From Microcella flavibacter (GTDB lineage Bacteria; Actinomycetota; Actinomycetes; Actinomycetales; Microbacteriaceae): 64,000 nucleotides of DNA. Where the stretch lies: the NCBI RefSeq assembly GCF_012530535.1, contig NZ_CP051299.1:186001-250000 (forward strand). The letters are read 5' to 3'. Positions 13,224 through 34,168 of the stretch are shown here, piece by piece. Within the stretch, counting starts at the first letter, position 1. The number at the start of each line of letters is the position of its first letter. Position numbers and translations under genes: made by a program. The notes under the pieces were generated by a model. That model ran no database searches. It was given only the letters and a program-made list of their open reading frames with translations, and was not told the DNA's origin.

Positions 13224-15086
13224 TCATTCCCCGCGTGTCGGCCGCGCCATGCGCGCCATCGCCGCTGCGGCCGCCGACGAGGACCCCGCTCCGACTGTCC
13301 GGACCCCGGCCCGCGGAGGAACGACCGCCGCGATCGCCGCATCGCGCTCGCCTCGCCACGGCGCTCCCTCCGACCGCAGCACGGTGCAGCGGTACTGCGC
13401 CCGCGTCATGCCCACGTAGAGCAGGTCGTTCCAGCTGAGGTCGTGCTCGTCGGCCCAGGCCGCGGCGGCCGGGCTGACATCGGTCAGGATGACGGCCGCG
13501 GTGTCCAAGCCCTTGTGCTTGAAGATGGACCGCCACGTGATCGCGCGTTCGCCGGTGAGCAGGTCACGCAGCAGGCGCTCTTCCTTGTTGGCCGGCTCGC
13601 GGGCGAGGAATCGACCGACGAGGGACGACTGCTCACCGAAGGGGCTGAGTACGACGATCTCCTCGGGGTCGTGCTCGTCGCGCAGCGCCTTGATCGCCGT
13701 CAGCAGTGCAGGCAGTTCGCGGCCTTCGGACACATTGACGACCTCGAGTGCGCCGGGAGTAGATGAGCTCATACGGTCGCCCGAATGGTCGTTCTGGCGC
13801 CCCAACTGCCCTCGGACCGCACGCAGAAGCCGCGGAGCGACACGGCAATTGCGCCGCACCCTTACGTGGACGATCCCGGCGCCGAGTTCGCGCGCGGCCG
13901 GCAGCGGCTCGGCCCGCTCTCCGGTCGCGCGCATGATCTGCTGGCCGGCATCGCCCGCGAGCACGAAGCTCGATCGCTCCGGATCGCCGCCAAGGCACAG
14001 GGCCCGCAGCACGTCCATGATCAGCGGCACGCCCGCGACATCCTGGAACTCGTCGACGCAGATCGTGTCGAAGCCTCCCCGTTCCGGATGCTCCCGCAGG
14101 GCCGCGAGCGTCAGTTCGGGTAGCTCGTGCCGGTACCAGTGGTCGGTGGCGCCGTCGGGGTTTGCCTCCAGCTCGCAGACGCGAAGCATGACTGCGTTGA
14201 GGTCGGCGACCTCGATGTCGAAGGTGCTCTCGCCGACGAGGTCACGCAACGACTGGGCCATGAGCAGGTTCCAACACGTCAGCAACGTGCGCCGCCCGGC
14301 CCGGGCTGCGCGACGGGCGGCGACGGCCACGAGCCAGCTCTTGCCGCAGCCGGCGGGCCCGTCGAAGTAGAGATGGCGATTCGTCTCGAGCAGCTCGAGT
14401 ACCAGCTCCTGGTCCTCCAGCAGCACGCGTTCGTCGATGAGGCGTGCGCGCCGACGGTCGGAGGCTGAGGCTGTGGCCGTGAAGCTCGAGAGCAGGGCAT
14501 CCGCGACCGCGGTCGCGTGCGCGGCGGTGAGCGAGGCGGGCTCGACGTCGATGTTTTCGCTCTCTCCGAACCAGGCGCAGTGCTCGGCGAGCACCTTCTC
14601 GACGAGAGCGCCCGGGTCGCTGAGCTCATCGCTCCACCCGAGCTCCCACTCGAAGAAGGTGAAGTCGTGCGGGGTGCCGTTGTCGAACTGCCAGCGCCCG
14701 AGGTTCGTGAACCACACCAGTCGGGCGATCGGCTCGTCCCCGCGCAGCAGCTCGCGCTGCTTCAGGAAGTGCCGGATGCTGCGCCGTGCGCCGTCGAGCT
14801 GTGCGAACGGATTCTTCGTCGGTGCCGGGTTCTTCGCGAGGAACCACTCGCCGTCGCGATACTCCACGTGCTCGGCTGTCTTGGCTTCGATGAGCAGGAT
14901 GCCCCGCTCGGGCGCGACGACGATCACGTCGATCTCGCCGCTGAGGCCGGCCACGTGCTGCCCGACGGCGAGCCCGGTGATGACGACCCAGTCGTCTCGA
15001 CCGCTCATGCCCTCGAATGCGGTAAAGAGGCGCTGCTCGCTCCGATTTGCGTCGGTGCGTTGACGGGTCGGATGCATGCGAGGCAT
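13224..15086 (-). CDS. NERD nuclease-related domain fused to a superfamily 1 helicase
   Basis: A 620-residue protein. Residues about 12-130 form a NERD domain with the PD-(D/E)XK-like core GEIDVIVVAPERGILLIEAKT, including the D and the E-x-K pair. From about residue 235 an SF1 ATPase follows: Walker A DGPAGCGKSW, Walker B DTICVDEFQDV, FVLAGDAGQQI, and near the C-terminus the helicase motif VGMTRAQYRCTVL. The last 50 residues are alanine and arginine-rich. NERD-helicase fusions recur in defence islands and plasmids and probably process foreign DNA. It heads a minus-strand cluster with the EcsC/TerB-like gene. Confidence 0.88.
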   Translation of the reverse strand: MPRMHPTRQRTDANRSEQRLFTAFEGMSGRDDWVVITGLAVGQHVAGLSGEIDVIVVAPERGILLIEAKTAEHVEYRDGEWFLAKNPAPTKNPFAQLDGARRSIRHFLKQRELLRGDEPIARLVWFTNLGRWQFDNGTPHDFTFFEWELGWSDELSDPGALVEKVLAEHCAWFGESENIDVEPASLTAAHATAVADALLSSFTATASASDRRRARLIDERVLLEDQELVLELLETNRHLYFDGPAGCGKSWLVAVAARRAARAGRRTLLTCWNLLMAQSLRDLVGESTFDIEVADLNAVMLRVCELEANPDGATDHWYRHELPELTLAALREHPERGGFDTICVDEFQDVAGVPLIMDVLRALCLGGDPERSSFVLAGDAGQQIMRATGERAEPLPAARELGAGIVHVRVRRNCRVAPRLLRAVRGQLGRQNDHSGDRMSSSTPGALEVVNVSEGRELPALLTAIKALRDEHDPEEIVVLSPFGEQSSLVGRFLAREPANKEERLLRDLLTGERAITWRSIFKHKGLDTAAVILTDVSPAAAAWADEHDLSWNDLLYVGMTRAQYRCTVLRSEGAPWRGERDAAIAAVVPPRAGVRTVGAGSSSAAAAAMARMARPTRGE

Positions 15087-15552: not shown

Positions 15553-16967
15553 AGTAGTGCCCCATAAGGTGGTGTAGCCCGGTGGCTGGCTCGTCGTCTT
15601 GGACGTGGGCGCGGTCACCGTGGTGTTCCTTCGAGGAAATTCTCACATCCCACTCGAAAGGCATCACACACGATGACCGCTCCACATATTGTCGACCCTG
15701 CTGGCGTTCTTGGCGAGGCTCTCGCCGAGGCGTCCCCGGATTTGATGCGCAGCCTGCTGCAGACCATGATCAACGCACTGCTGTCCGCGGACGCGGACGC
15801 CGTCGTCGGCGCCGAATGGGGCAAACCCAGCCCCGATCGGCTCACGCAGCGCAACGGCTATCGGCGCCGCGAGCTGGACACTCGCGTCGGGACGGTCGAC
15901 GTCGCGATCCCGAAGTTGAGGTCAGGAACCTACTTCCCCGAGTGGCTCATGGAGCGCCGCAAGCGCGCTGAGACTGCGCTGATCACCGTCGTCGCGGACT
16001 GCTACCTCGCCGGGGTCTCCACCCGGCGGATGGACAAGCTGGTGAAGACCCTCGGCATCCACTCGCTGTCCAAGTCGCAGGTCTCGCGCATGGCCGCCGA
16101 TCTCGACGAGCACGTCGAGCAGTTCCGCCACCGCCCTCTTGGTGATGCCGGACCGTTCACCTTCGTTGCCGCTGACGCGCTGACCATGAAAGTGCGTGAA
16201 GGCGGCAGGGTGATCAACGCCGTGGTGCTGATCGCGACCGGCGTCAACGCCGACGGACGCCGCGAAGTCCTCGGCCTGCGGGTCGCCACCTCCGAAACAG
16301 GGGCGGCCTGGAACTCGTTCTTCGCCGATCTCGTCGCACGCGGCCTGGGCGGGGTTCGTCTGGTCACCTCCGACGCCCACCAAGGCCTCGTGGAGGCGAT
16401 CGCCGCGAACCTGCCCGGCGCGAGCTGGCAACGATGCAGGACGCACTACGCCGCGAACCTGATGTCCGTGTGCCCGAAGAGCATGTGGCCGGCGGTGAAG
16501 GCGATGCTGCACTCCGTCTACGACCAGCCCGACGCAGCCTCCGTCCACGCCCAGTTCGACCGACTCCTGGACTACGTCGACGGCAAGCTGCCCGACGCGC
16601 ACGAGCACCTCGACGCCGCGAGAGCGGACATCCTCGCGTTCACGCAGTTCCCCGAGGGGCTCTGGCAGCAGATCTGGTCCAACAACCCCAACGAGCGCCT
16701 GAACCGAGAGATCCGCCGCCGCACCGACAGTGTCGGCATCTTCCCCAATCGCGACGCGATCGTCCGCCTCGTCGGCGCGGTCCTGGCCGAGCAGACCGAC
16801 GAATGGGCCGAAGGACGCCGCTACCTCGGCCTCGACATCCTCGCCAAGTCCCGTCTGAGCCTCGTGCCCGACACCGGAAACGAGGTGACTACCGACACCG
16901 TCCTCGAACTCAGCGCTTAACCCATCACTTCGAAGGACCGCGCTACACCACTACCTGGGACTTGACC
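15553..16967 (+). mobile_element. Complete IS256-family insertion sequence (1415 bp)
   Basis: The ends carry imperfect inverted repeats of about 31 bp (15553-15583 and 16937-16967, 21 of 31 positions matching by eye), with the shared core TGGTGTAGC. One 415-codon transposase gene fills the interior. The element is bracketed by an exact 8-bp direct repeat GTGTGGCT at 15545-15552 and 16968-16975, which is the target duplication length expected for IS256. Intact transposase, matching ends and an undamaged target duplication indicate a recent insertion. Confidence 0.92.
15673..16920 (+). CDS. IS256-family transposase
   Basis: A 415-residue mutator-type DDE transposase. Visible family features are the N-terminal LLQTMINALLSADADAVVG, the block RLTQRNGYRRRELDTRVG, then FTFVAADALTMKVREGG carrying the first aspartate, VRLVTSDAHQGLVEAI with the second aspartate, WQRCRTHYAANLM, and late QIWSNNPNERLNREIRRRT containing the catalytic-type glutamate. 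Length is normal for the family and there is no frameshift, so it is probably active. It moves only the surrounding IS. Confidence 0.97.
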   Translation: MTAPHIVDPAGVLGEALAEASPDLMRSLLQTMINALLSADADAVVGAEWGKPSPDRLTQRNGYRRRELDTRVGTVDVAIPKLRSGTYFPEWLMERRKRAETALITVVADCYLAGVSTRRMDKLVKTLGIHSLSKSQVSRMAADLDEHVEQFRHRPLGDAGPFTFVAADALTMKVREGGRVINAVVLIATGVNADGRREVLGLRVATSETGAAWNSFFADLVARGLGGVRLVTSDAHQGLVEAIAANLPGASWQRCRTHYAANLMSVCPKSMWPAVKAMLHSVYDQPDAASVHAQFDRLLDYVDGKLPDAHEHLDAARADILAFTQFPEGLWQQIWSNNPNERLNREIRRRTDSVGIFPNRDAIVRLVGAVLAEQTDEWAEGRRYLGLDILAKSRLSLVPDTGNEVTTDTVLELSA

Positions 16968-17170: not shown

Positions 17171-18244
17171 ATGCGCAATGGTGAGATCTCGGTCCTGGAT
17201 CTCTTCGCCGGCGCCGGCGGCCTCACGGCCGGATTCCACTCCGCGTCGACGCGGTACCGGTCGATCGCAGCCGTCGAATGGGACGCCGCGGCGGCCGCCT
17301 CGTACGAGGCGACCTTCGGTGAGGGGATCATGCACAACGTCCCGATCCAGGAATGGTTGAAGAACGGCGACGTGCCCGACTCTGTGGATGTGATCGTCGG
17401 AGGGCCGCCGTGCCAGGGCTTCTCCACGCTCGGCAAGCGGGTCGTCGAGGATGAGCGCAACTCGTTGTGGGAGCAGTACGAGGAGACGATCCTCCGCACC
17501 GACCCTAAGTACTTCGTCGTCGAGAACGTCGCGGCCTTCTCGAAGTCGCCGCAATTCGAGCAGTTCCTCGCGTCCACCGAGCCCGGCGGGAGGCTCGAGG
17601 GGTACCAGTTCGAGCACTGGATCCTCAACGCGGCGGATTACGGGGCCCCTCAGGCGCGCAAGCGGGCCGTGATGATCGGCCGCCGGAGCTCGCTGCCTCT
17701 GGTGGGCGCCCCGCCCGCGACCCACATCGGACGCCACGCGACGGTGGCGGACGCGTTCGCCGGCGTTCCGACGGACCCGCGACCGGTCAGCGCGTTGTCC
17801 GGTCGAACCACCACGTATGCGGGCAAGGAGTTCGCCGGTTCTTTCATCCCGAGCGAGTTGCACATCGCTCGTGACTACGCCAAGGTCTCGATGGATCGCT
17901 TTCAGAAGATTCCGAAGGGCGGCAACCGCTTCGACCTTCCGGATGACCTGCTCGCGCCGTGCTGGCGCGGGCACCGTTCCGGCTCGGCGGACGTGATGGG
18001 CCGCATGCACTGGGACCGACCATCGGTGACCATCCGCACGGAGTTCTTCAAGCCGGAGAAGGGGCGCTACCTGCACCCCGAGGCGAACAGGGCGATCACC
18101 CACTACGAGGCGGCTCGCCTGCAGGGCTTCAGTGAGGATCACCGCTTCGTGGGCTCCCGGACGGCGATCGCCCGGCAGATCGGCAACGCCGTGCCGGTGC
18201 AGCTCGCGGCTGCGATCGCCCGGCATCTCGAACCGCTGCTCTGA
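17171..18244 (+). CDS. drmMII: C5 cytosine DNA methyltransferase (DrmMII-like)
   Basis: A 357-residue single-chain C5 methyltransferase with motifs in normal order: DLFAGAGGLTAGF (motif I), GGPPCQGFSTLG with the catalytic cysteine (motif IV), FVVENVAAF (motif VI), QARKRAVMIG (motif VIII) and RQIGNAVPV (motif X). The target-recognition region lies between about residues 210 and 300. ATG at 17171 just precedes motif I. The gene is convergent with drmB, 9 bp apart, and lies opposite the vsr gene on the far side of the locus. In class 2 DISARM a C5 methyltransferase marks host DNA; the same role is inferred here. A solitary modification enzyme is the alternative. Confidence 0.85.
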   Translation: MRNGEISVLDLFAGAGGLTAGFHSASTRYRSIAAVEWDAAAAASYEATFGEGIMHNVPIQEWLKNGDVPDSVDVIVGGPPCQGFSTLGKRVVEDERNSLWEQYEETILRTDPKYFVVENVAAFSKSPQFEQFLASTEPGGRLEGYQFEHWILNAADYGAPQARKRAVMIGRRSSLPLVGAPPATHIGRHATVADAFAGVPTDPRPVSALSGRTTTYAGKEFAGSFIPSELHIARDYAKVSMDRFQKIPKGGNRFDLPDDLLAPCWRGHRSGSADVMGRMHWDRPSVTIRTEFFKPEKGRYLHPEANRAITHYEAARLQGFSEDHRFVGSRTAIARQIGNAVPVQLAAAIARHLEPLL

Positions 18245-18253
18245 CCTCGGCGC

Positions 18254-20038
18254 TCACCCCCCGGTCGACTGCTCGAGCATGGTCGAGAGGAGAGTCTGGA
18301 AGTAGCCGGGCGCGCCTTCTCCGCCCACCAGGGTGAGGCGGTCGAGCAGGAGATTGCTCGACTCGCACGAGGTCTCGGGCGACAGCACGCACGCGTGGCA
18401 CGCTGCCAGGTTGAGCCCGTCGATGCTCTGCGGCTCGCTCTCGCTGCAGACCGGGTCGTTTGCGCACCACGCGGCCTGCTCCACCGCGCGCACGACCGCG
18501 TTCGCCAGATGCGCGGTCTCCCCCTGCCGGACCAGGCCGCCGAGCGTCCCCTCCACGTCGGAGGACGTGGTGTAGATGAACACCCCGTAGTCGCCCTCGC
18601 CCTCGCAGTAGATGCGCTCGCGGAGCGACGGGGCTGAGTATCCGCTGCGGAACGCCAGCTCGGCCATCAGAACGTGCGCGAGGGTGTGAAGCAGGACGTA
18701 CTCCGGCGACGCCTCATGCAGTCGGCCGCCGAGCACGGATGCAGCCTGAGCTTCGACGACCGGGGCGAACCTCGCCGTGACGGCGGGAGATGACGCCCAC
18801 GCATCCACTGCGGCCCCGCCGAGCTTCAGGAAGATCCCCTCGCCCCAACCCTCGACAGCGGGTAACCACTTGGATTCGAGGTCGCTCGCGGGCACGGACG
18901 GCACCAGCTCGGCATCGGGCCGGTATCGCGAGAAGCCGTAGGACGCGCGAACTTCGCGCACCCGGTCGACGAGCACGACCGAGTCGACGAGAGAGCGCAG
19001 TCCCGACGCGACCGGCCCTCCGTCGTCGGGGAGGGGTGCCCGGCGGGTCTCGAAGTCGACCGTCGGGGCGGCATCCCTCGACGCCGCGAGGAAGGCCTCG
19101 AACTCCTCTGCGAGCAGCGATCCGCGGGTCGCCCGAAGCGGCGGCGCGTCCCCGCGCGCCTCCGCGACGACCTCGCGCACCGTCGCTGCAGGGCACTTCA
19201 GTGCTGCGGACATCTGCGAAACGAGCTGCACCTCGAGGTCTGTATCGGGTCGGGCGAGCAGAGCGCCGAAGAACGGATGACGTCGCACTGCGTCCTCGAT
19301 CTCGAGCGCCCTCCCCTCCACCTCGGGTATGTCGATGGCGCTGACCGTCTCCCCGAAGTGGAGGCTGGTCGCGCCCCGCTGCTGGACATCGATCGGCTTG
19401 CCGCAGCCGGGGGAGCCGGACTCCCACGGCTGCGCGCCCCAGCAGGTCTGACCCTCCCGGAGGAGGATGTCGCGACGGAGCTCGCCGAGACTGCGCGAAG
19501 TGCCGCACGCCTCGCACACGACCTCGAGCGCACTCAGGCCCTCCGCGCGACCCCTGGAGGAGCGGAACCGGAGTCGATCCGTGGACGAGCACTCGCCAGG
19601 GGCGCTCGCGTGCACCCACTTGACCCAGGGCACGTCTCCGACATGACTGCGCTCGGTGCAGACGACGACGAACCTGATCGGGACGAGACGGCCCTCGCAC
19701 TCCTCGCAGAGCGGGCGCGTCCCCTTCTCGCGGCTTCTCCGCCACCGCGTCATCGCCTGGCACTCCTGGCAGACCAGCCAGGACGGGAAGCGGACGAACT
19801 CCAGGCCGCCGCTCCGTCCGCGACCGTCCTCCTTGTGAGGAGGAGCGCCCCAGAGCCGGTCCACCCGGAGTTTCGACGCGAGACGGTCGCAGGGGATCTC
19901 CTGCCGCTGCGCGACGGGGGGCCAGTGGTCCCCGGTGACCGCCATGAACGATTCGCCGACGATGTCAACGATGGCCCCCGGGCCGAACGGCGAGACCGTC
20001 TCCGAGAGCCTGATCGACCGCTGCTTGACGTCGTTCAT
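18254..20038 (-). CDS. drmB: DrmB-like DUF1998 protein of a DISARM-type system
   Basis: A 594-residue protein. It begins SIRLSETVSPFGPGAIVDI, which is the DrmB N-terminal signature, then has two four-cysteine zinc-type clusters (CQEC with CEEC near residues 85-110; CEAC around 180). The C-terminal DUF1998 part has C-N-DPVC, LAACHACVLSPETSCE and NLLLDRL, the usual cysteine series. The ATG at 20038 overlaps the TGA of drmA (ATGA), so the two are coupled. DrmB works with the helicase DrmA in binding and restricting incoming DNA. It is third in a minus-strand operon headed by the GHKL-helicase gene. Confidence 0.9.
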   Translation of the reverse strand: MNDVKQRSIRLSETVSPFGPGAIVDIVGESFMAVTGDHWPPVAQRQEIPCDRLASKLRVDRLWGAPPHKEDGRGRSGGLEFVRFPSWLVCQECQAMTRWRRSREKGTRPLCEECEGRLVPIRFVVVCTERSHVGDVPWVKWVHASAPGECSSTDRLRFRSSRGRAEGLSALEVVCEACGTSRSLGELRRDILLREGQTCWGAQPWESGSPGCGKPIDVQQRGATSLHFGETVSAIDIPEVEGRALEIEDAVRRHPFFGALLARPDTDLEVQLVSQMSAALKCPAATVREVVAEARGDAPPLRATRGSLLAEEFEAFLAASRDAAPTVDFETRRAPLPDDGGPVASGLRSLVDSVVLVDRVREVRASYGFSRYRPDAELVPSVPASDLESKWLPAVEGWGEGIFLKLGGAAVDAWASSPAVTARFAPVVEAQAASVLGGRLHEASPEYVLLHTLAHVLMAELAFRSGYSAPSLRERIYCEGEGDYGVFIYTTSSDVEGTLGGLVRQGETAHLANAVVRAVEQAAWCANDPVCSESEPQSIDGLNLAACHACVLSPETSCESSNLLLDRLTLVGGEGAPGYFQTLLSTMLEQSTGG

Positions 20039-23000
20039 CGTCTCTCCCCATCCGCTCGGATCCGAACCACCTGATCGACGGAGCGCATCGAGTTCATGAC
20101 GGGCCACCCCGCCCCCGATTCCGTGAACTGCCGGAGGAGCCTCTCGGACGCCTCCGCGGATCGGTACTTCAGGCCCGCTCCAGTCTCGCGCGCCTCGGAG
20201 GCGCGCCGATCCCACTCGTCCACCGCAGCGCGGAGCTCCTCGGCGACCCGAGCGCTCTCCGGAGGATCGGCTTCGGCGACATGCGCGAGGATCGCGTCGA
20301 CGACGCGCTGCGTCGATACGGAGTCCTTCCGGAACATCCGTGCGTCGTCGTTCCCGCTCAAGCCGGCCGCATGACGCATCAGGATCACCAGGATCGCGCG
20401 GAGCGCGCGACGGCGCGCTTGCAGAGCCCACGGCGAGACCGACGAGGGTTCGACGAAGCGGTAGATGGACGTGTGATGCGGGATGAAGGACTCGAAGATC
20501 GAACGGTCCCTCGGTTTGCTCGAGCGGAGCATGGTCACCACCAGTCCCGGCACGGCCCCGCGTCCCACGCGACTCGTCGCCTGAATGTACTCGGAGGTCG
20601 ACTTGGGCTGGCCGTTCACCAGCATGAGCCCGAGCCGCGCGACGTCGATGCCAACGGACAGGATGTTCGTGGTCGCGAGCGCGTCGAGTGCCTCCCCGTC
20701 GTCGTCAGGGCCGACGCCGAGCTGGTCTAATACACGGAGAAGCTCGTCTGCATCGACGTTGCCGTTCAGCTCTTCGACGCCGTCCCGCGCGGGGACTCGG
20801 GTCGGCGCGCCGGTCGAGTCGCGCATCCTGTCGAGATTGGTGCGGACGTCGTCCCGAAGGATCGTCACTGTTCGGCCCAGCTCCCTGAGGCTGTTGTGGT
20901 ATACGACCAGTGTCCAGTAAGCGTCCAGGGTCGCGCCCTGCATGTCCAGACCGACGGGTGCCTGCAGGAGATCGGCGGCCATCTGCCCCAGGGCCCATGC
21001 CGGGGTGTGAGCCTGCGGCATCACTCCGACGTAGAGCCGCCCAGGGGTGTCGGGATCCGGTTCGGCGAAGTAGTTGTCATCCGCGTCGATCCCGCTCGGC
21101 GGGAAGAGAGCCACATCGGATGCCATGAGCTCCGAGATCTGGCTCGACGCCGCTCTCGTCGTCGCGGTGGAGGCCACGACCTTGGCCGGGCTGCCCGTCC
21201 AGGAGAGCAGCGCCCGCACTGCGGCCTCGTAGACGCCGACGATGGTGCCGAGCGGGCCCGAGATGAGGTGCAGCTCGTCCTGGATGATGAGTGAGGGCGG
21301 GCGGCAAGCGGAGCTGCCGAGGCCGAACAGCTCGGCGCCCTTCGGAATCCATGCCAGTCGGGCGAGCTTATCCACGGTGGCGACGAGCATCGTCGGCGGC
21401 TCCTCGTAGATCGCCTCGTCGACGACCTGCACGGGGAGGGATGCGTGGAACTCGCATTCGGCGCGGGGGCAGAAGAACTCGAAGCGAGCACTGTCGGCTC
21501 TGATGCCGTACCTGCCCTCGTCCGCGGTGCGGCGCACCGGCAGGATGCTCTCGTCGCACCAGGGGCAGGCGCGCACCTGGAAGCGATTCCGTGGACGCGC
21601 CTCCTTCAGCGTGCTGCGGCGCTGCACCTTCGCTTCCGCGAACGTTCCCGGTGTCGTCGAGTTGCCGAGCCACAGCCCGATGGAGAACGGAGGTGCGCCG
21701 CGGAGCGCGGGTTCGGCGCGCCGGAGCAGCTCCAGAGCGCAGATCAGGATCGCTGCGCGCTGGAACTGCTGCGCCGTCAGCAGCCGCATCGTGTAACGGG
21801 TAATGACCGCTGTGCCGCCGCCTGCATGGCCGTGGACCAGCCGGCGTCGGATCATCTCGATGGCGGCCAGTCCCAGATAGGCCTCGGTCTTGCCGCCACC
21901 CGTGGGGAACCAGATCAGGTCCACCAGCTCGCGATCGCGGTGCGAACCATCCACCGTCGACGCGAGGCTCAGAAGGATGAACCCGAGCTGGAACGGCCGC
22001 CACCGCGGCTCCTCCGCACTGTCCGACCGCGAACGCAGCATCTGAGCGCGCATTGCCCTGTTAGCGAGCCGGAACGACGTCAAGGTCGCAGCGTCTCGTC
22101 CCAGGAGCTCGACGCCCTCCTCCATTCTGACGATCGCGCGCTCGATCTCCGAGCCGATCGCGTCCGCAGCGATGCGGTGCCGCTCAGCGACGCTCTCGGC
22201 CTTCCGGTCGACCTCCTCCGACCACGCACGATAGTCCTGGATGAAGGAGCGCAGCCCGCTCTGGAGCGCTTCGATGTCAATCTCCGCGTCGCCGAGGACG
22301 TCGAGCCGCAGGAAGTCCCCGTCCCCTCGACGCGCCCGGATTGCAGGGATCTCCGCCGCCGGCATCACGGCGGTGCGTATCGCGGTCGGATGGTCTGCTG
22401 CGCCCCAGTCGACGGAGACACCGTGCCCGACGCCGAAGGAGTGCTTGTCCCGATACCGCAGCTCGAGCTCGAGCTCCTCATCCGAAGTGGTGAAGGGCCT
22501 GCTCGACGGGTATGGGAGGAGGGTTCCGTCGTTCAGCTCTACCTCGAATCCGGCCTGGAACAGGCAGAGCTCCGGTCGGGCCTTCGCCTCGCCGCGGCCG
22601 ACGGTCGCTGCAGAGGAAAGCGCGACGGTGGTCAGGGAGCCGCGGTCGAAGCGACGTGTCCGCCAGGTCACGCGCGCACGCCCACCGAAGATGGCCGCGG
22701 TCCCGCTCCTTCGCGCGTCGATGACGACCGCCTCGTCGATCGGGCGCCGTGCCCAACTGCGGGGAGTAGACGCCGTGGGATCGTCCGACATCTCCGACTC
22801 GCTCGTCGTCGCCCGGCCGACGGTGTCGGAACCGAACTCGACCGCTGCAGGCGCCGGCGCGCCACCCCGCTGCTCGTAGACGCCGGCGAACGCTCGGATC
22901 TCGAGGTGGTCGGAGTCGTGGAGGAACGACATGCCCATCGAGGAGGGCGCCCAGCCGAACGAGCCGACGAGGTTCTTCCCGGGGTCCTCCTCGGTGTCGT

Positions 23001-23268
23001 CCTCGACGGGCATCTCGGAATCCTCGAAGATGTCCGCATCGTCTCCTTCGAAGTCCGCCTCGTCAGCCGACAGCGGCTCGTCGAGGAGTCCCCCGATCAG
23101 GGGGGAGCCATCCGCTGCCTCGCTCTCGATCGGGAAGAGGACACCCACGAGGTACGTGAAGACCGGGTTCTGCTCGATCACCTCATCCGGCTCGCCGAGG
23201 GGCCCGATCCACTCCGCACGCAGGCGCTCGACCAGCCGGTGGCGATCGTCCTTCTCGTCGATGCTCAT
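20035..23268 (-). CDS. drmA: DrmA-like helicase of a DISARM-type system
   Basis: A 1077-residue protein. The N-terminal 400 residues are acidic and beta-rich (GSFGWAPSSMGMSFLHDSD). The helicase core has Walker A IWFPTGGGKTEAYLGLAAIE near residue 455, a DEAH-like IIQDELHLISGPLG near 665, VVASTATTRAA, and C-terminal motifs ILSVGIDVARLGLM and EYIQATSRVGRG near 895. These are the landmarks of DrmA. The protein unwinds or translocates on DNA together with DrmB. Both ends overlap neighbouring genes by ATGA, showing tight coupling in the operon. No PLD nuclease (DrmC) gene accompanies it. Confidence 0.92.
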   Translation of the reverse strand: MSIDEKDDRHRLVERLRAEWIGPLGEPDEVIEQNPVFTYLVGVLFPIESEAADGSPLIGGLLDEPLSADEADFEGDDADIFEDSEMPVEDDTEEDPGKNLVGSFGWAPSSMGMSFLHDSDHLEIRAFAGVYEQRGGAPAPAAVEFGSDTVGRATTSESEMSDDPTASTPRSWARRPIDEAVVIDARRSGTAAIFGGRARVTWRTRRFDRGSLTTVALSSAATVGRGEAKARPELCLFQAGFEVELNDGTLLPYPSSRPFTTSDEELELELRYRDKHSFGVGHGVSVDWGAADHPTAIRTAVMPAAEIPAIRARRGDGDFLRLDVLGDAEIDIEALQSGLRSFIQDYRAWSEEVDRKAESVAERHRIAADAIGSEIERAIVRMEEGVELLGRDAATLTSFRLANRAMRAQMLRSRSDSAEEPRWRPFQLGFILLSLASTVDGSHRDRELVDLIWFPTGGGKTEAYLGLAAIEMIRRRLVHGHAGGGTAVITRYTMRLLTAQQFQRAAILICALELLRRAEPALRGAPPFSIGLWLGNSTTPGTFAEAKVQRRSTLKEARPRNRFQVRACPWCDESILPVRRTADEGRYGIRADSARFEFFCPRAECEFHASLPVQVVDEAIYEEPPTMLVATVDKLARLAWIPKGAELFGLGSSACRPPSLIIQDELHLISGPLGTIVGVYEAAVRALLSWTGSPAKVVASTATTRAASSQISELMASDVALFPPSGIDADDNYFAEPDPDTPGRLYVGVMPQAHTPAWALGQMAADLLQAPVGLDMQGATLDAYWTLVVYHNSLRELGRTVTILRDDVRTNLDRMRDSTGAPTRVPARDGVEELNGNVDADELLRVLDQLGVGPDDDGEALDALATTNILSVGIDVARLGLMLVNGQPKSTSEYIQATSRVGRGAVPGLVVTMLRSSKPRDRSIFESFIPHHTSIYRFVEPSSVSPWALQARRRALRAILVILMRHAAGLSGNDDARMFRKDSVSTQRVVDAILAHVAEADPPESARVAEELRAAVDEWDRRASEARETGAGLKYRSAEASERLLRQFTESGAGWPVMNSMRSVDQVVRIRADGERR

Positions 23269-26200
23269 CCCGCGCTCCAGAGATGATCGAACTCGGTGAA
23301 CGCGAGACGATCACCGAACTGCTCGAACGTGTCCTCGACGTTCACGATCAGACACCTCTCCTTGCCGCCGTTCCTCGGCCCGCGTAGTCCGCGGCCGATC
23401 ATCTGGTGGTAGCGGTTCGGGCTGAAGGTCGGACGCGCGATGTAGAGCGCGCGGGTCTTCGGGGCGTCGAAGCCCTGCGTCAGCAATTCGCAATTGACGA
23501 GGATCCGTGTCTCACCCGCCTTGAACTTCTCGATCACCCGGCGGCGCTCAGGCATCCGCATGCTGCCGTCGACCGCTGCTGCGTCCTCCCGTCCCTCGAG
23601 TCGGAGCAGCGCGGCCACGGTGTGGGCGGAGACCACTGACGGGGCGAAGACGAGGATCGGCCACTCGGGGTCCTGCTTGAGGATGTCGTCCACGAGCATC
23701 TGAGTCCTGTCGAGATCCTGCCCGATACGGTCGAGCATCGACTTCGTGACCTCCTTCAGGCGGAAGAACTCCTTGTCAGCTGTGGCGTCGAGCGGGACGT
23801 TCATGCCGGTGAGCACTCGATGGTCGACCTCCGCCAGCACCTCACGACGACGCAGCTCCGCGATCGGCTCATCGCCGAGACTGGGGGCGTCGATGCGCCG
23901 GGCTCCGAAGCGATTGGCGAAGAGCCGGTTCGTCTCGTCGTTCCGGCCGCGGTACGCGGTCGCGGTCAGCCCGATGAGGGGGCGGTCCGTCCGGGACGCG
24001 GTCAGCCCGAGCCATCGGAGGATCTCGGTGTAGCTGCGGGAACCTGCGGTGTGGGCCTCGTCGATCACGACGATCCCCGGCTCCGACAGCCATCTGTACA
24101 TGTCCGCCTGCGGGCTGTTGATGCGGGTCAACAGCTGATCGTCCGTGGCGACGACGATGTGGACGTCCTGGACCGATTCGTCCAGCTCCCGACCGCCGAA
24201 GAACCGCGATATTTCCATGACGCGCCGATCCCCGACTGCGCGCCAGACCTCCATCCAGGACGCGATCGCCTGCTCGCAGAGCTCCTCGGACTGGGCGATC
24301 CAGAGGATCGGGCCCCTGAGCTCGTCGCTCACCAGGAGCCGCACGATCGACTCCACGGCGACGCGTGTCTTGCCGGCCCCGGTCGGGAGGTTGAGAAGAG
24401 CGCGCGCCGCCTGGCCGTCGGTGCTCCGCTCCAGGGCGATCTCGCGCACGCCCTTCGCGATCTCCTCCTGGAAGTCGTGCAGCGGCGCGAGCTCCACCTT
24501 TCCCAGAACGTGCTCCACCGGGAGGGGGTTGCGGGCCTTCGCCCCGGCGAACGCCGTCGCGAAGCCGAGGGAGGCGACCAGGCGTTGAGCCTCGGGCGAG
24601 CCCGCCCATTGCTGCGGGACCTGGATCCCCTTCCCTGCCATCGTCTCCTTGAGCATGAGGAGCGCGTCGTAACCCCTCACAGTCAGGTAGAGCTCCGCGA
24701 CCTCGCGATCGTTCTGAGCGCCCTTCCGCTGCCGCACTGATGCGAGAAGCCCATCGGGAAGCAGGCCACCGAGCTGCTCTGCATCGGCGAGCAGGAGGAT
24801 CTTCTCCACGTCGGACCCTGCGGCGCGCACTCTTCCGACAAGTTCGTTCACGCGGAGCTGCTGGCCGAGGTCGATCACCCGATGGATCTCCTCGTCCGAC
24901 AGTCGGAGCTGGAGAAGCTGGGAGACCTGCGACAGCACGCCGATCTCGTCGAGCGATTCGTCGATCGTCAGGAGATCTCCCTGCTCGATGCCCAGCAGCT
25001 CCTTCTCGCGCATGCCGTTGGGGCCCTGGATCTTCCTGACGATACGCGGGCTGGATCGCACCTTGTACCGGGAAAGGTCCGCATCGCCCGCGAGGCGAGG
25101 GAGGGCGGGGAAGACATCGAGCAGCGGTACCTCCTCGGCTCCCTCGATGATCTCCAGTGCTCGTCGGAGGACCTCTTCGCTCGTCCTGAGCCCCCACTGG
25201 TCGGCGAGCCGGGCAGCGGCGGATTTGCTGCACGGGAGGTAGGACGTGCCATCGGCGCGCAGCTCGAGCGCGTCATCCGCGCTGAGCGCGAGCACGACGG
25301 AGGATCGCTCCACGATACGGATCTGCCCGTCGGGCGATACCGCGGGCAGCTTCGCACTCCGCGTGAACTTCCTTCTATCTGCAGCCTGGAGGAGCGTCTC
25401 GGTCAACCGCTCCATGCCGTCGGCCTCGAGCATGTAGTCGCTCCGCCGGAACGCGAACTCGATCGCCGAATCCGGGGCTGACGCCAGGTCTTTCGGAAGA
25501 GAGAGGGCGAGAGCGAGGTCGCGATCAGCCATCACCGGGAGGAACGCGCCGTAGGCGGACAAGCTCGGGCCGAGGGCGACCGCGAAGGGCAACGAGCCCA
25601 GCGTGGTCTGAGCCCGGCCGTACTCGGTCAGCGCCCACAGCGCCGGGGACACCACGTCCGTGGCGCCCTTCGCGCCCGTCGACACGGTGAACCCGATGCT
25701 GAGCTTCTGGGTGTCCAGGTTGCGGATGATCTCGGCGGACCACGCCGTGAGCGCCTGGTGATCATCCTTCAGGTCGTGGAGGAGGCTCAACGGGCCCGTT
25801 CCGACGGCAGTCGGCCAATGGATCTCGAGCAGACGCGCATTCTGGGCTGCGAGACGAGCTTCCAGGTGGCTGGTCACATGCGACCGCCACCGGGCGTACA
25901 CGAGGTCGTCGCTCAGGTCGGCACGCGAATCCGCACCGGTGAGGCATCCCGCGGCTGCGAGGAGATCTCCGCGACCGCGGTGAATTGCTGGATCCGCGTG
26001 CAGGGCGTCATTCTCGGCCGCGATCCGCTGATCCGCGAAAATCGATGACGCGGTCCGCCAGGTCCCGGTTCTGTCGCGCACCTTGATGGTCCTGCCTGCG
26101 TCGACCGCCTCTCGCATCGCCCGGATGCCCGACGCGGGTGAAGCCGAGGTGATGGCACTCCAGTAGCGCTCCCACTCGGCCTCGCCCCAGGACGATCTGA

Positions 26201-27950
26201 TGCCTGCGGTGAGCGCGGTGGCGGTCTGGTCGATCGAGACTCCCTGGAAGCCGAGCCCTCGGAGGACGGCTCTGATCTCGGGCACGCTGCTGAGGGCCCG
26301 ATCCACGATGGGAAGTCCTTCCGGTACGACACTTCCGGGCTCTGCGAGGAGCACGCGCGAGCTCTCGGCCGCTCGTGCCCAGCCGCCGCCCTCGAGGGGA
26401 ATCACCGGGGAGGAGAAGATCTCCGGGAGGGAGCCCGCCCGACGAGGGACGCCGGCGAGGATGTCGAGTGCTGCGAGAATCGCCTTCTGATCGCGGACCA
26501 TTGCGAGCTCGCGCAGCCACGCCGTAGCCGTCGTCTCCGAGCGGCCGCGGCCGGCGTCGTCCGTCGCGCGGAGCAGTGCCCGCAGTCTCGTCCTGCGGGT
26601 CGGCGTCTGGTAGCAGCGCCAGTGCGGGACGTCGGAGCGAGGAACTGACGCCTGCCAGTCGCGCACTCCTTCCGGTTGCACCTGATCATCGTCGGTGTCG
26701 AGCGCGCCGTGGAAGTGCTCCGCGACCCGGAGAGCGCCGTTCGCATCGGGGATGAAGGCACGTCTGGATGCGAGTTCGGGGATGCGACGGGAGAGGAACG
26801 AGTCCGCTTCGCTCCGGGTCTCTCGTCCGCGGGCGGGGAAGAGGTCGAAGTGAGCGGCCGGATCCTCAGGTGTGGATGCGCGCCCTGCTACCTCGAGGAA
26901 CAGCTCCGCGGATGCTTCCAGCAGCTCCCGATTGAGGGCGCTCATGCCCGGGACCAGCGCGGTCCGGTCCTCGATGAGGTGCCATGGAGCATTGAAAGCA
27001 CCGCGGGCGGTCGTGAAGTCGCCGAGGGGGAACCACGCCCACAGGCGGCCCAGCTCGGCCGTTTTGCCGTCCAGTGGCGCCGCGTAGGAGACGAGCATCT
27101 CGTCACGCGCGATCGTAGAGGGGAGTTCGGCGAGGGCTTGAGTCGAAGGTCGCACCATGCGTGACGCGTAAGCGTAGCGCCGCACCTCGTCCCCATTGGT
27201 GATCGTGACGTCGTCGGCATCCCGCTGCCGGAGGTACGTCCGCGGCTCGCGCTGGCCCTCCGCGCCCGCGAGGACGACGCCGAGCTCGTTCACCCAATCC
27301 AAGAACAACAGGTAGTTCGGAGGCAGATTCACCAGCTCTTCGCGCACTCGAGCGCCACCCCGGGCGAGAGGCAGCTTCACGATCGTGGATGCCCATGTCA
27401 TCAGGTCGGCGAGGTCCGGGTCCGACGCCGCCTCCGCGCGCGCATCGATCACTGCGGGTACCCGCATGACGGGGAAGCGATCGCCCTCGATGCCCGCGTC
27501 GATGAAGATCGACTGAGACCCGGGCGCATTGAACTGGAATGCGACCGTCCGGCTGAAGACTTGCGGATTGTCCGTCAGCGCCAGCACGGACTTGAAGCCG
27601 AGCCCGAATCGACCGATCTCATCGCCGCGCTTCGAGGCGATGAAGGCGTAGCAGAGCGCGGTCACGCCCCGTTCGTCGAACGCCGCACCCTCGTTGGCGC
27701 AGTAGAGATTGCCGCCCGCTATGCGGAACTCGACCCGCCCGGCTGATCCTCCGGTCAGAAGGGCATCGGCGGCGTTCTGAAGCAGCTCGGGAATCTGCCG
27801 CTTCCCGTATCCGCCCGAGGCGAGATCCTCCTCATGACCTAGGTGCTCCTGAAGCAGGAGCGGATCATTCACGTAGTTGGAGATGGCGATTCGCTGGCGC
27901 TCGCCTACGAAGGCGACGAGAGCTGCGTCGGGTTCCGGCCAGACCGACAC
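23265..27950 (-). CDS. Giant sacsin-type GHKL ATPase / SF2 helicase fusion
   Basis: A 1561-residue protein. The first 200 residues are a GHKL/HSP90-like ATPase of sacsin type: IPELLQNAADALL (N box), NEGAAFDERGV and EIGRFGLGFKSVLAL (G boxes). About 900 residues of unassigned, mostly helical sequence follow. The last 400 residues are an SF2 helicase with LLNLPTGAGKTRVAVES near 1185, IVVIDEAHTAGSRSY near 1293, LIGLTATAYRG, LTQGFDAPKTRALY and YHQMIGRGLRGPRN near 1515. It starts with GTG and its TGA overlaps the ATG of drmA. In position it occupies the place of the large DrmD or DrmE protein of described DISARM classes, but the architecture differs. Probably the sensor or motor of the system. Confidence 0.85.
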   Translation of the reverse strand: MSVWPEPDAALVAFVGERQRIAISNYVNDPLLLQEHLGHEEDLASGGYGKRQIPELLQNAADALLTGGSAGRVEFRIAGGNLYCANEGAAFDERGVTALCYAFIASKRGDEIGRFGLGFKSVLALTDNPQVFSRTVAFQFNAPGSQSIFIDAGIEGDRFPVMRVPAVIDARAEAASDPDLADLMTWASTIVKLPLARGGARVREELVNLPPNYLLFLDWVNELGVVLAGAEGQREPRTYLRQRDADDVTITNGDEVRRYAYASRMVRPSTQALAELPSTIARDEMLVSYAAPLDGKTAELGRLWAWFPLGDFTTARGAFNAPWHLIEDRTALVPGMSALNRELLEASAELFLEVAGRASTPEDPAAHFDLFPARGRETRSEADSFLSRRIPELASRRAFIPDANGALRVAEHFHGALDTDDDQVQPEGVRDWQASVPRSDVPHWRCYQTPTRRTRLRALLRATDDAGRGRSETTATAWLRELAMVRDQKAILAALDILAGVPRRAGSLPEIFSSPVIPLEGGGWARAAESSRVLLAEPGSVVPEGLPIVDRALSSVPEIRAVLRGLGFQGVSIDQTATALTAGIRSSWGEAEWERYWSAITSASPASGIRAMREAVDAGRTIKVRDRTGTWRTASSIFADQRIAAENDALHADPAIHRGRGDLLAAAGCLTGADSRADLSDDLVYARWRSHVTSHLEARLAAQNARLLEIHWPTAVGTGPLSLLHDLKDDHQALTAWSAEIIRNLDTQKLSIGFTVSTGAKGATDVVSPALWALTEYGRAQTTLGSLPFAVALGPSLSAYGAFLPVMADRDLALALSLPKDLASAPDSAIEFAFRRSDYMLEADGMERLTETLLQAADRRKFTRSAKLPAVSPDGQIRIVERSSVVLALSADDALELRADGTSYLPCSKSAAARLADQWGLRTSEEVLRRALEIIEGAEEVPLLDVFPALPRLAGDADLSRYKVRSSPRIVRKIQGPNGMREKELLGIEQGDLLTIDESLDEIGVLSQVSQLLQLRLSDEEIHRVIDLGQQLRVNELVGRVRAAGSDVEKILLLADAEQLGGLLPDGLLASVRQRKGAQNDREVAELYLTVRGYDALLMLKETMAGKGIQVPQQWAGSPEAQRLVASLGFATAFAGAKARNPLPVEHVLGKVELAPLHDFQEEIAKGVREIALERSTDGQAARALLNLPTGAGKTRVAVESIVRLLVSDELRGPILWIAQSEELCEQAIASWMEVWRAVGDRRVMEISRFFGGRELDESVQDVHIVVATDDQLLTRINSPQADMYRWLSEPGIVVIDEAHTAGSRSYTEILRWLGLTASRTDRPLIGLTATAYRGRNDETNRLFANRFGARRIDAPSLGDEPIAELRRREVLAEVDHRVLTGMNVPLDATADKEFFRLKEVTKSMLDRIGQDLDRTQMLVDDILKQDPEWPILVFAPSVVSAHTVAALLRLEGREDAAAVDGSMRMPERRRVIEKFKAGETRILVNCELLTQGFDAPKTRALYIARPTFSPNRYHQMIGRGLRGPRNGGKERCLIVNVEDTFEQFGDRLAFTEFDHLWSAG

Positions 27951-28066
27951 GGGGTGACTCCTTGTCCGCCCTCATCCGTGAGGGACTCTCCGACCCTACC
28001 GAGCGGCACCGACATCCCGATGTCACGCGTTCGGGGTACGCGGACGGCGCGCGTTGAGGATCGTGC
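27951..28066. promoter_or_regulatory. Divergent promoter region of the DISARM-like operon and vsr
   Basis: This 116-bp gap separates the divergent starts of the GHKL-helicase operon and the vsr gene and must drive both. No clear operator palindrome is visible. Confidence 0.35.
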
Positions 28067-28612
28067 ATGATCGGGGCCATGTCCCCCGAGCCGCGATCGT
28101 CGGACACGTCATGGGCCGTGAATCCCGGCGTCCGCCGCTCCATGCTGTCCAATCGTCGGAGGGACACCGCCCCCGAGTTGGCTGTGCGCCGCATGCTCCA
28201 CGCGAGTGGCTTGAGGTACCGCGTCGACTTCGCGCCGACTGCGAACAAGCGCCGACGCGCCGATATCGTCTTCACACGGCGGCGTCTCGCGATCTACATC
28301 GACGGCTGCTTCTGGCATTCATGTCCACTGCACCGGACCAGTCCGAGAGCGAACTCCGACTATTGGGAGCCGAAACTTCGGCGCAACGTGGAGAGGGACC
28401 GGGAGACGACCGCCGCGCTCGCGGCCGCGGGCTGGTCGGTGTTCAGATTCTGGGAGCACGAGCCTCCCGAACTGGTCGTCGCCACCGTGATCGCGGCCCT
28501 CCGGGATCAGGTGCCGGAGCACAGTGCTGGTGTCGACGCCCTCTCGATCGCGGCGATTCGGATCACCGCTCGGTCAGATCCGCATACTCCGGGTGCCGCC
28601 GCATCCACATGA
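28067..28612 (+). CDS. vsr: Very short patch repair (Vsr-type) endonuclease
   Basis: A 181-residue protein with the Vsr core: RSMLSNRRRDTAPELAVRR, LRYRVDFAP, RRADIVFTRRRLAIYIDGCFW with the metal aspartate, HSCPLH, and LAAAGWSVFRFWEHE. Vsr nicks next to T:G mismatches that arise when 5-methylcytosine deaminates, so it fits with the C5 methyltransferase at the other end of the locus. An ATG four codons downstream (28079) is an alternative start. The 40-residue C-terminal extension runs over the 3' end of the opposite-strand acetyltransferase gene. It may serve repair of modified sites or act as a nuclease in the defence system. Confidence 0.9.
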   Translation: MIGAMSPEPRSSDTSWAVNPGVRRSMLSNRRRDTAPELAVRRMLHASGLRYRVDFAPTANKRRRADIVFTRRRLAIYIDGCFWHSCPLHRTSPRANSDYWEPKLRRNVERDRETTAALAAAGWSVFRFWEHEPPELVVATVIAALRDQVPEHSAGVDALSIAAIRITARSDPHTPGAAAST

Positions 28613-31323: not shown

Positions 31324-33219
31324 ATGGTGACGATCGCGAGAACCGACGCTGAGCTCGACGCCCTCGTCGCCCGCCTCACCGACCCGAACCGCGAACGGCC
31401 CCTGGTGGTCGCCACCACGACGTTCGCGACCGGTGAGCCGTTCCTCGACCTCGACCGCCTCGCATCCGACGTCGGCGACGTCGCCGATCTCGCGCTCATC
31501 TCCTCCGGCCAGCTCACCTACCGCTTCGCCGCGGCGCTCCCGCCGGGCTGCGAGACCTACAACGGCGCCGTGCGCTCCTTCCCCGGCGGCGCCGACTGGA
31601 TGCGCCGCCCCGAGCGGGCGCGCCGACGCTTCTCCTTCTTCGACCACGATCGCGACCGGATGCACGACTCGGTCGTCGACGACGTCCTCGGCATGGCGCA
31701 CCGGGCCGGCCTCACCCGCGCCTCGACGAGCGGCGCCCGAGCTGTGACCGGCACCGTTCAAGGGCTCGTGGCCGACGGTTCCCGCGCCATCGTGCAGCTC
31801 GACGACGGCGGCCTCGCCACGATCACCGCCGAGCTCGCCTTCCCGCCGGCGCCGCTCGACTGGGTCATCCGACCCGGCATGACCGTGCACGGGATGCTCG
31901 ATCCCGAGTCACGCCGCCTCGCACTCGACCCGGCCATCGCCGGCGCGGGCGACCTGTGGTCGCAGTTCCCCGAGGGCGGCGTCACCCTCGCCCTCGTGCA
32001 CGAGGTGGATCGGCAGCGAGCCACCCTCCTCGTGCATCCCGCGCACCCCGTGACCGTCACCCGCGCCGAGCTGTCGGCGAACCCGCGCGACCGCGTCGAC
32101 CTGCTGCTCGCCGAGGGCGACGTGATCGAGGTGCGGGTCGTGCGCGGCGCGCGCGGCGAACCGGCGCTGCGCACCATCGACCTCGACGACGACGAGACCG
32201 TGTTGCCGGCCGTGGCGCTGACCCCGGGCGGGATGCCCTGGCTCGAGCCGGGCCGCCCCCTGCCCGCCACCGAGGCCGACGTGAGGGCGGCCGACATCGA
32301 CACCATGCTCGGATCCCGAGCCCGCGGCGCTGCTGCCGCGGCCGGCCCCGTCCCGGTGCCTGAGGCGCCGACGACGCGCATCGAGGCGGCACCGCCACCG
32401 GCACCGGCACCGGCACCGCCACCGGCTCCCGCGCAGGCCCGACCCGTTCCCGGGGCCGGCCCTCGACGCGTCGTGCCGCTCCAGTCGGGCGAGGCGACCT
32501 CGACCGCCCCGCACCCTGAACTCCCTGCTCGCGGTGCGTTGCAGAGCGCCCTCGCCACGGTCGACGCGCTCAAGGCTCAGCTGCGGGCTGAGAGGGCGCA
32601 TCGCGCGGACGCCGAGGCGAGCGAGCTGGGCCGGGAGGTCGCGCAGCTCAAGGACCTGATCGGGGAGCTCGCTCGCGACGCCCGACGCGCCTCCGATGAG
32701 GCCGCCGTGCTGAGAGAGCGGCTCGGCAGTGCCCAGAGCGCGCTCCGCCAGGCCCGACGCACGGGCGGGGAGTCGGCGGTCGTGCGACCGCGCGATCGCC
32801 GTGATCGCTTCACCACGGCGGAGGACTGGGTGCGCCACGAGCTCTACCTGCTGTGGATCGAGCGCCTCGATGCGACGACGCGCGCCGAGCATCCCCTGCC
32901 CGACGAGATCGCGATCGGCGACCGCTTCTGCGAATCGCTGGAACCGCTCGACGACGGTCAGCTCGCCAAGGCGCTGCGCTGCGCGATGGAGGCGGTGACG
33001 CACTTCATCGGGCGCCTGCCCGCGCGCGAGGTGCACCCGTTGCGCTCGGGTGACGGCGGGGATGACGCGCCCGTCGTGCGATCGGCTGACGGGGCGCGGT
33101 GCCTGCGCGCGTACATCGAGCAGAGCACGCCGCAGGCGCGGCGGCTGCACTACTGGTCGATCCCGGGCGGGGGCATCGAGCTCGAACGCGTCGTGCCGCA
33201 CGACGACGTCGAGCCCTGA
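31324..33219 (+). CDS. Large protein of unknown function with coiled-coil segment
   Basis: A 631-residue protein. Residues 1-110 contain PLVVATTTFATGEPFLDLDRLASDVGDVADL and PPGCETYNGAVRSFPGG split by a short loop; I recall a similar opening in uncharacterised Streptomyces proteins. Residues 130-280 include two beta-rich stretches resembling small OB/S1-like barrels (GTVQGLVADGSRAIVQL; GVTLALVHEVDRQRATLLV). A proline/alanine linker (about 345-385) leads to a long coiled coil (410-480) and a C-terminal alpha/beta part with FTTAEDWVRHELYLLWIERL. No catalytic motif can be named. The ATG lies next to the truncated ROK gene. Confidence 0.6.
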   Translation: MVTIARTDAELDALVARLTDPNRERPLVVATTTFATGEPFLDLDRLASDVGDVADLALISSGQLTYRFAAALPPGCETYNGAVRSFPGGADWMRRPERARRRFSFFDHDRDRMHDSVVDDVLGMAHRAGLTRASTSGARAVTGTVQGLVADGSRAIVQLDDGGLATITAELAFPPAPLDWVIRPGMTVHGMLDPESRRLALDPAIAGAGDLWSQFPEGGVTLALVHEVDRQRATLLVHPAHPVTVTRAELSANPRDRVDLLLAEGDVIEVRVVRGARGEPALRTIDLDDDETVLPAVALTPGGMPWLEPGRPLPATEADVRAADIDTMLGSRARGAAAAAGPVPVPEAPTTRIEAAPPPAPAPAPPPAPAQARPVPGAGPRRVVPLQSGEATSTAPHPELPARGALQSALATVDALKAQLRAERAHRADAEASELGREVAQLKDLIGELARDARRASDEAAVLRERLGSAQSALRQARRTGGESAVVRPRDRRDRFTTAEDWVRHELYLLWIERLDATTRAEHPLPDEIAIGDRFCESLEPLDDGQLAKALRCAMEAVTHFIGRLPAREVHPLRSGDGGDDAPVVRSADGARCLRAYIEQSTPQARRLHYWSIPGGGIELERVVPHDDVEP

Positions 33220-34164: not shown

Positions 34165-34168
34165 CCGG

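What the first reader, a model, noticed from the sequence alone, without database searches (positions are those of the whole stretch)
17171..28612. DISARM variant without DrmC, with a GHKL-SF2 giant and a Vsr nuclease
DrmA and DrmB are clear and coupled by ATGA overlaps, and a C5 methyltransferase of DrmMII type is convergent. Described DISARM classes carry DrmC (PLD nuclease) plus DrmD or DrmE. Here no PLD gene is seen. The operon is headed instead by a 1561-residue protein joining a sacsin-type GHKL ATPase to an SF2 helicase, and a Vsr endonuclease is divergent. Methylation by C5 MTase and T:G repair by Vsr fit together, and Vsr may also stand in for the missing nuclease. This may be a separate class of DISARM.
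Basis: partly seen in the sequence, partly recalled or inferred. Interest (0 to 1): 0.78.

Follow-up and report, generated by a model that had tools for sequence, protein, structure and literature searches.

The report
DISARM-like defence headed by GHKL-helicase
An actinobacterium carries a probable anti-phage gene set in which the two core proteins of the DISARM system follow a giant fusion of a sacsin-like ATPase and a DNA helicase; dozens of other bacteria carry the same arrangement, so it looks like an unnamed branch of the DISARM family.

Summary
In detail: DrmA (1077 aa), DrmB (594 aa), a 1561-aa sacsin/GHKL-SF2 fusion, a C5 methyltransferase and Vsr are present, with ATGA overlaps. No drmC is found in the window, and no PLD gene lies near it in the genome. 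The arrangement recurs: of 80 GHKL-SF2 loci, 75 have at least 8 kb downstream, and 71 of those carry DrmA and DrmB on the same strand. A DrmC profile hits none of the 80 loci or the window. In 69 of those 71 loci an SF1 (UvrD or NERD-UvrD) helicase gene sits between GHKL-SF2 and DrmA; the window's small clade lacks it. And GHKL-SF2 goes with two DrmA clades (one clade rejected, p 6.5e-56). Two parts of the interpretation fail. Vsr as stand-in nuclease: Vsr is in 34 of 66 loci, always with a C5 methyltransferase, usually beside it. 'DrmMII type': the best profile is Druantia DruM2. Missing drmC alone is not new (PMC9142583). Verdict: a recurrent, apparently unnamed DISARM-like variant with exchangeable modification modules; function inferred, not shown. 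New variant of a known kind.

The parts
23265..27950 (-). Head gene, 1561 aa: N-terminal sacsin/Tiamat-like GHKL region (about 1-460), middle region without a listed family match, C-terminal SF2 (ResIII/RadD-like) helicase (about 1159-1540)
   Evidence: motifs; 7 full-length homologues, 80 loci kept
20035..23268 (-). drmA, 1077 aa, short-type YprA-family SF2 helicase
   Evidence: PADLOC DrmA 2.9e-196; NCBIfam DISARM_DrmAS 837 bits, below its 950 cut-off; 7s9v 4.7e-146
18254..20038 (-). drmB, 594 aa, DUF1998/MZB protein, start ATG in an ATGA overlap with drmA
   Evidence: NCBIfam DrmB_fam 411.8 bits against 240; MZB 1.1e-7; junction
17171..18244 (+). C5-cytosine DNA methyltransferase, 357 aa, convergent with drmB
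   Evidence: PF00145 1.1e-57; DruM2 1.3e-93, DrmMII 8.1e-45
28067..28612 (+). Vsr-type mismatch endonuclease, 181 aa, divergent from the head gene
   Evidence: TIGR00632 126.9 bits; solved Vsr 1cw0 3e-14
13224..15086 (-). NERD-SF1 helicase gene nearby; judged NOT part of the unit
   Evidence: NERD 1.8e-9; 71-79% identical genes in three same-genus genomes, two of them without a GHKL-SF2 match and the third with it on another contig

Best explanation
A DISARM-like DNA-restricting defence system. Proposed working: (1) the C5 methyltransferase marks host DNA; (2) Vsr repairs T:G mismatches left by deamination of 5-methylcytosines, a service to the mark and not the attack; (3) DrmA-DrmB loads on unmarked DNA with a single-stranded 5' overhang and translocates, as proposed for Serratia DrmAB; (4) the GHKL-SF2 protein is a second DNA motor whose sacsin/Tiamat-like head acts as a clamp or switch and controls engagement of the target; (5) in most relatives an SF1 helicase, in one clade with a NERD nuclease domain, processes or degrades the DNA; the window's clade has lost that gene and must block phage DNA without cutting it or borrow a nuclease. 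Shown here: gene content, motifs, conserved linkage, no DrmC found. Inferred: all steps of the mechanism. Not shown: anti-phage activity.
For: Conserved order GHKL-SF2, (SF1), DrmA, DrmB in 71 of 75 evaluable loci. DrmA and DrmB are family members. A C5 MTase is near in 56 of 66 loci with both flanks at least 8 kb, and Vsr in 34 of 66. Vsr lies in the locus in 29 of 48 loci tested, against 0.2 expected if the 53 Vsr genes of the same 48 genomes lay at random. L103 carries GHKL-SF2, UvrD, DrmA, DrmB, NERD-SF1, Vsr and MTase in one co-directional run. L026 and L028 carry a divergent DrmD-like gene and a type IIG/DrmMI-like gene and no C5 MTase in the held stretch. GHKL-SF2 and DrmA trees agree on the window's clade and on clade A. 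DrmAB biochemistry: PMC9142583 (passages).
Against: No activity data. 10 of the 66 loci have no C5 MTase in the held stretch. The GHKL G1-box is not canonical, so ATPase activity is uncertain. The 80 loci are the best of 248 relatives found by the scan, which favours close relatives, and many are Streptomyces, so the counts are not independent. PMC10270631 (passages) describes DISARM subtypes as all sharing drmABC, which this lacks.
Confidence: 0.62

Rival explanations
1. Two neighbours, not one system: DrmAB with GHKL-SF2 is a stand-alone defence cassette, and the MTase and Vsr belong to ordinary restriction-modification modules that share the island.
For: The MTase/Vsr modules differ between lineages: NaeI-type R-M gene (L030, PF09126; same cluster in L029, L039, L042, L046), two MTases with PDC-M33-like genes in many Streptomyces loci, DrmD-like and type IIG genes in L026/L028. 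10 of 66 loci have no C5 MTase.
Against: Vsr in 29 of 48 loci against 0.2 expected and MTase in 56 of 66; the single co-directional run in L103; MTase and Vsr bracket the cassette in the window and in L044.
Confidence: 0.25
2. Vsr is the effector nuclease that replaces DrmC.
For: In ARMADA the YprA helicase carries a fused, predicted active Vsr-type nuclease (PMC12458937, passages). Vsr lies beside the head gene in the window, L044 and G233.
Against: Not in 32 of 66 loci; never without an MTase in those 66; in 31 of 40 Vsr loci within 500 bp of the MTase; not seen at the locus in the four closest relatives.
Confidence: 0.08
3. The GHKL-SF2 protein alone is the defence effector (Tiamat-like), with DrmAB as accessory.
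For: TmtA profile 5.6e-38 on the N-terminal third; GHKL-SF2 copies without their own DrmAB in L046 and L086, and no DrmA seen in L073, L092 and L097.
Against: L046 and L086 lie on contigs that hold a complete set (L075, L087); L073 and L092 have only 4.5 and 2.5 kb downstream; DrmAB linkage is otherwise nearly complete.
Confidence: 0.15

Closest known systems
DISARM class 1 (drmD, drmMI, drmA, drmB, drmC)
   Same: DrmA and DrmB homologues, methyltransferase at the locus
   Different: No DrmC found; DrmD-like genes in only 5 of 81 loci and DrmMI-like in 2 of 81, neither in the window; short DrmA; GHKL-SF2 head gene; usually an SF1 helicase
DISARM class 2 (drmMII, drmE, drmA, drmB, drmC; gene list recalled)
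   Same: C5 MTase with DrmA and DrmB
   Different: Head gene is GHKL-SF2; no DrmC found; MTase closer to DruM2 than DrmMII; DrmE could not be settled here
DISARM-like operons without GHKL-SF2 (DrmA, DrmB, small UvrD-like ATPase, in some a NERD-SF1 helicase upstream)
   Same: DrmA branches beside clade A; no DrmC found; C5 MTase and Vsr nearby in some
   Different: No GHKL-SF2 gene in the fetched stretch
ARMADA (PMC12458937)
   Same: YprA-family helicase, common in Actinomycetota, Vsr-type nuclease theme
   Different: ARMADA has BrxHII-like and PglX-like partners and a YprA protein with fused Vsr; here DrmA and DrmB are separate genes and Vsr is separate
MORC/paraMORC R-M neighbourhoods (PMC2292703)
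   Same: GHKL ATPase, SF2 helicase, cytosine methylase and Vsr in one neighbourhood
   Different: Separate genes in the passages seen; 'sacsin' does not occur in that text
Tiamat (PADLOC TmtA; name of the system recalled)
   Same: N-terminal GHKL region
   Different: Best stretches of the TmtA matches stay in the N-terminal third of the protein; association of Tiamat with DrmAB not tested

Membership tests
DISARM (any class) | DrmA helicase and DrmB DUF1998 protein as adjacent separate genes | tested here: met
DISARM (any class) | DrmC phospholipase-D nuclease | tested here: not met
   No PLDc_2 near the locus in the own genome; a DrmC profile built from six drmC-bearing loci hits 7 reading frames in those six loci and 0 in window + 80 loci; tblastn with three DrmC proteins 0 of 81. 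PMC9142583 states it is dispensable and often missing
DISARM (any class) | DNA methyltransferase at the locus | tested here: met
   C5 MTase 17171-18244; 56 of 66 relatives
DISARM class 1 | DrmD SNF2-like helicase and DrmMI | tested here: not met
   Not in the window; DrmD-like in 5 of 81 and DrmMI-like in 2 of 81 loci at E 1e-10
DISARM class 2 | DrmE | tested here: inconclusive
   No DrmE among the listed PADLOC hits of 10 window proteins (25 of 31 families listed for the head protein), but the 801-aa L115 gene that I had taken for DrmE matched no PADLOC model at 1e-5, so there is no working control
DISARM class 2 | DrmMII-type C5 methyltransferase | tested here: inconclusive
   DrmMII 8.1e-45, but DruM2 1.3e-93 is better
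NCBIfam DISARM_DrmAS equivalog | score over curated cut-off 950 | tested here: not met
   837 bits
ARMADA | YprA helicase with BrxHII-like and PglX-like partners | tested here: not met
   DrmA and DrmB are separate genes; no BrxHII- or PglX-like gene among 10 window proteins scanned, apart from a weak BrxHI/BrxHII match (2.1e-4) of the head helicase; the MTase is C5
DISARM (any class) | protection against phage | not testable with these tools
   needs plating assays

The most novel reading that the evidence does not exclude
A third class of DISARM, defined by a fused sacsin/Tiamat-like GHKL-SF2 motor (with an SF1 helicase in most members) in place of DrmD or DrmE and DrmC. The motor has been paired at least twice with distinct DrmAB backbones and works with whatever methylation module is at hand (C5 MTase with Vsr, NaeI-type R-M, paired MTases, DrmD-like plus type IIG MTase), which would make it a general licensing unit of DrmAB.
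Probability: 0.45. Interest if true: 0.72.

Novelty: new variant of a known kind. Interest (0 to 1): 0.6.

Why it matters
How DrmAB tells foreign from self DNA, and which subunit kills, is open in DISARM (PMC9142583 calls for study of the less conserved components). A widespread family that lacks DrmC, adds a GHKL-headed motor and swaps methylation modules separates the invariant core from exchangeable parts. It also ties sacsin/Hsp90-like ATPases, as in Tiamat-type proteins, to a DNA-translocating restriction machine that can be tested gene by gene in a laboratory actinobacterium.

Tried and rejected
NERD-SF1 helicase at 13224-15086 as a displaced system gene: attractive because distant homologues lie next to DrmA or DrmB in 4 of 10 other phylum genomes with a match (G108, G074, G176, G233). 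Rejected because its 71-79% identical relatives are in G004 and G006, which have no GHKL-SF2 match, and in G001 on another contig.

A single clade of GHKL-SF2-linked DrmA: rejected by the AU test, p 6.5e-56, on 48 of 96 DrmA rows chosen by me, with L153 (genome G334, whose GHKL-SF2 lies elsewhere on the contig) counted in the group. The tool warned of long branches in the set. In the GHKL-SF2 tree (FastTree, 38 of 79 rows) clade A is one group, but the UvrD-type proteins are not (5 changes).

PLDc_2 search of the relatives' whole genomes (78 of the 80 loci plus three control records): not used for a count, because contig numbers could not be matched to loci and the lists were capped; the three drmC-bearing control records did match. 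A local DrmC profile was used instead. The motif scan in that call gave one HKD-like hit, a 138-aa frame at the edge of L084, which the DrmC profile does not hit.

L115 was first taken as class 2; its 801-aa gene did not match PADLOC, so the label was dropped (it stands as 'class2like' in the output). Phages: 623 records match the head protein, none over 80% of it; the 10 listed match the helicase part. Plasmids: 16 records, none over 80%.
Full report
WHAT IS THERE. The window is bases 186001-250000 of the single contig of a 2.62 Mb genome. Its genus mate G001 has a contig of the length (35118) of Microcella pacifica NZ_VIKT02000022.1, so the host is probably Microcella, Microbacteriaceae (inference). 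On the minus strand run a 1561-aa head gene (23265-27950), drmA (20035-23268) and drmB (18254-20038), joined by ATGA overlaps. A C5 methyltransferase (17171-18244, +) ends 9 bases before the end of drmB; Vsr (28067-28612, +) diverges from the head gene. Family evidence is and motif patterns. DrmA is of the short type and stays under NCBIfam's equivalog cut-off (837 against 950 bits): kin to DISARM DrmA but not a close copy.

THE HEAD PROTEIN. Residues 45-463 match the Tiamat profile TmtA (5.6e-38), and about residues 50-130 match solved sacsin and, weakly, Hsp90. The C-terminal 400 residues are an SF2 helicase with PTGAGKT, DEAH, LTAT and QMIGRGLR. E55, Q58, N59, D62 and most of the GRFGLGFKS box are invariant among 8 sequences; E55, Q58, N59, D62, G113, G116, G118 and K120 stay invariant among 51. 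The G1-box reads ANEG, not the canonical DxGxG (canonical form recalled), so ATP hydrolysis by the head is not certain. No family listed or 43 has its best stretch in residues about 480-1150 (25 of 31 families listed).

IT RECURS. Full-length homologues were found in 4 of 59 relatives besides the own genome. In the phylum sample 8 of 396 genomes match: the own genome, three full-length (G233, G238, G334) and four that match over the helicase end only (G184, G319, G172, G234). Of the 80, 75 have at least 8 kb downstream: 71 carry DrmA and 71 DrmB on the same strand. The four others are L046 and L086 (on contigs that also hold a full set), L093 (DrmAB and SF1 on the opposite strand) and L097 (none in 10 kb). 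The five left out for short downstream sequence are L027, L067, L073, L092 and L096; L027, L067 and L096 do show DrmA. In the phylum sample G233 and G238 have DrmAB next door; in G334 the gene lies near a contig end, with a DrmAB about 29 kb away. The loci are not independent: many are Streptomyces.

THE MISSED GENE. In 69 of the 71 loci with DrmA an SF1 helicase gene lies between GHKL-SF2 and DrmA. Over all 80 loci it is of UvrD type in 50 and NERD-UvrD type in 22. The exceptions are L026 and L028; with L027 and the window they form one group in both trees. L026 has a PD-(D/E)XK protein and a UvrD helicase right after DrmB, AddAB-like by my reading, which may be a replacement.

NO DRMC. The own genome's PLDc_2 genes lie at 2.21 and 2.34 Mb, the locus at 0.20-0.21 Mb. 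A DrmC profile from six drmC-bearing loci hits those loci and nothing in the window or the 80 loci; tblastn agrees. Absence of DrmC is not in itself new: PMC9142583 (passages read) says it is dispensable and often missing, and the GHKL-less DISARM-like operons fetched here lack it too. Against this, PMC10270631 (passages) treats drmABC as common to the DISARM subtypes.

TWO PAIRINGS. DrmA proteins beside GHKL-SF2 fall in two clades, A (NERD type and the window's clade; beside GHKL-less operons, some with a NERD-SF1 gene) and B (UvrD type, grouping with class 1 and others under a midpoint root). Holding them as one clade is rejected. GHKL-SF2 itself keeps clade A together, while the UvrD-type proteins are not one group in that quick tree. 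Either GHKL-SF2 joined DrmAB twice, or it was old and lost in several lineages.

WHAT IS KNOWN. Bell et al. 2025 (PMC12458937; outline with abstract, sections 5 and 26, and passages read) divides YprA-family defence systems and states that the DISARM-like clade holds many uncharacterised DISARM-like classes; 'GHKL' and 'sacsin' do not occur in its main text. The CoCoNuT paper (PMC11090510, passages) notes a DISARM-like system beside McrBC. Iyer et al. 2008 (PMC2292703, passages) describes GHKL (MORC/paraMORC) genes with SF2 helicases, cytosine methylases and Vsr in R-M neighbourhoods, the nearest earlier idea. The listings of searches of the held open-access library, and the passages I read, showed no description of GHKL-SF2 with DrmAB; subscription papers, including Ofir et al. 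2018 (not held), and supplements were not seen.

VERDICT. A real, recurrent DISARM-like variant. It meets the DrmAB and methyltransferase criteria of DISARM, fails DrmC and class 1, and class 2 could not be settled. It works, most likely, like DISARM: methylation as self mark and DrmAB as the foreign-DNA motor, with GHKL-SF2 as an added motor. No function has been shown.

Noticed in passing
window 15569-16951: Mutator-type transposase gene (15673-16920) flanked by 15-nt inverted repeats (93% complementary), an IS256-like element by my reading, between the NERD-SF1 helicase gene and the methyltransferase.
   Followed up: partly
A sigma factor heading a DrmAB operon is unexplained.
   Followed up: no
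L103 4277-18838 (Acidobacteria MAG): GHKL-SF2, UvrD, DrmA, DrmB, NERD-SF1, Vsr and C5 MTase in one co-directional run, the most complete form seen and a good test construct.
   Followed up: partly
[not shown]
   Followed up: no
L054, L060, L066, L098 and other loci, about 1-5 kb upstream of GHKL-SF2: A conserved divergent trio: HTH protein with a PDC-M33A match (cluster 6, 38 loci), a 331-aa protein without a match (cluster 8, 33 loci) and a DUF6339 protein with a PDC-M33C match (cluster 9, 30 loci).
   Followed up: partly
window 33932-35074 and 31324-33219: HipA_C protein gene (6e-33) and a 631-aa protein with a weak HEC-07 match (1.5e-7) on the right flank, consistent with a defence island.
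   Followed up: no
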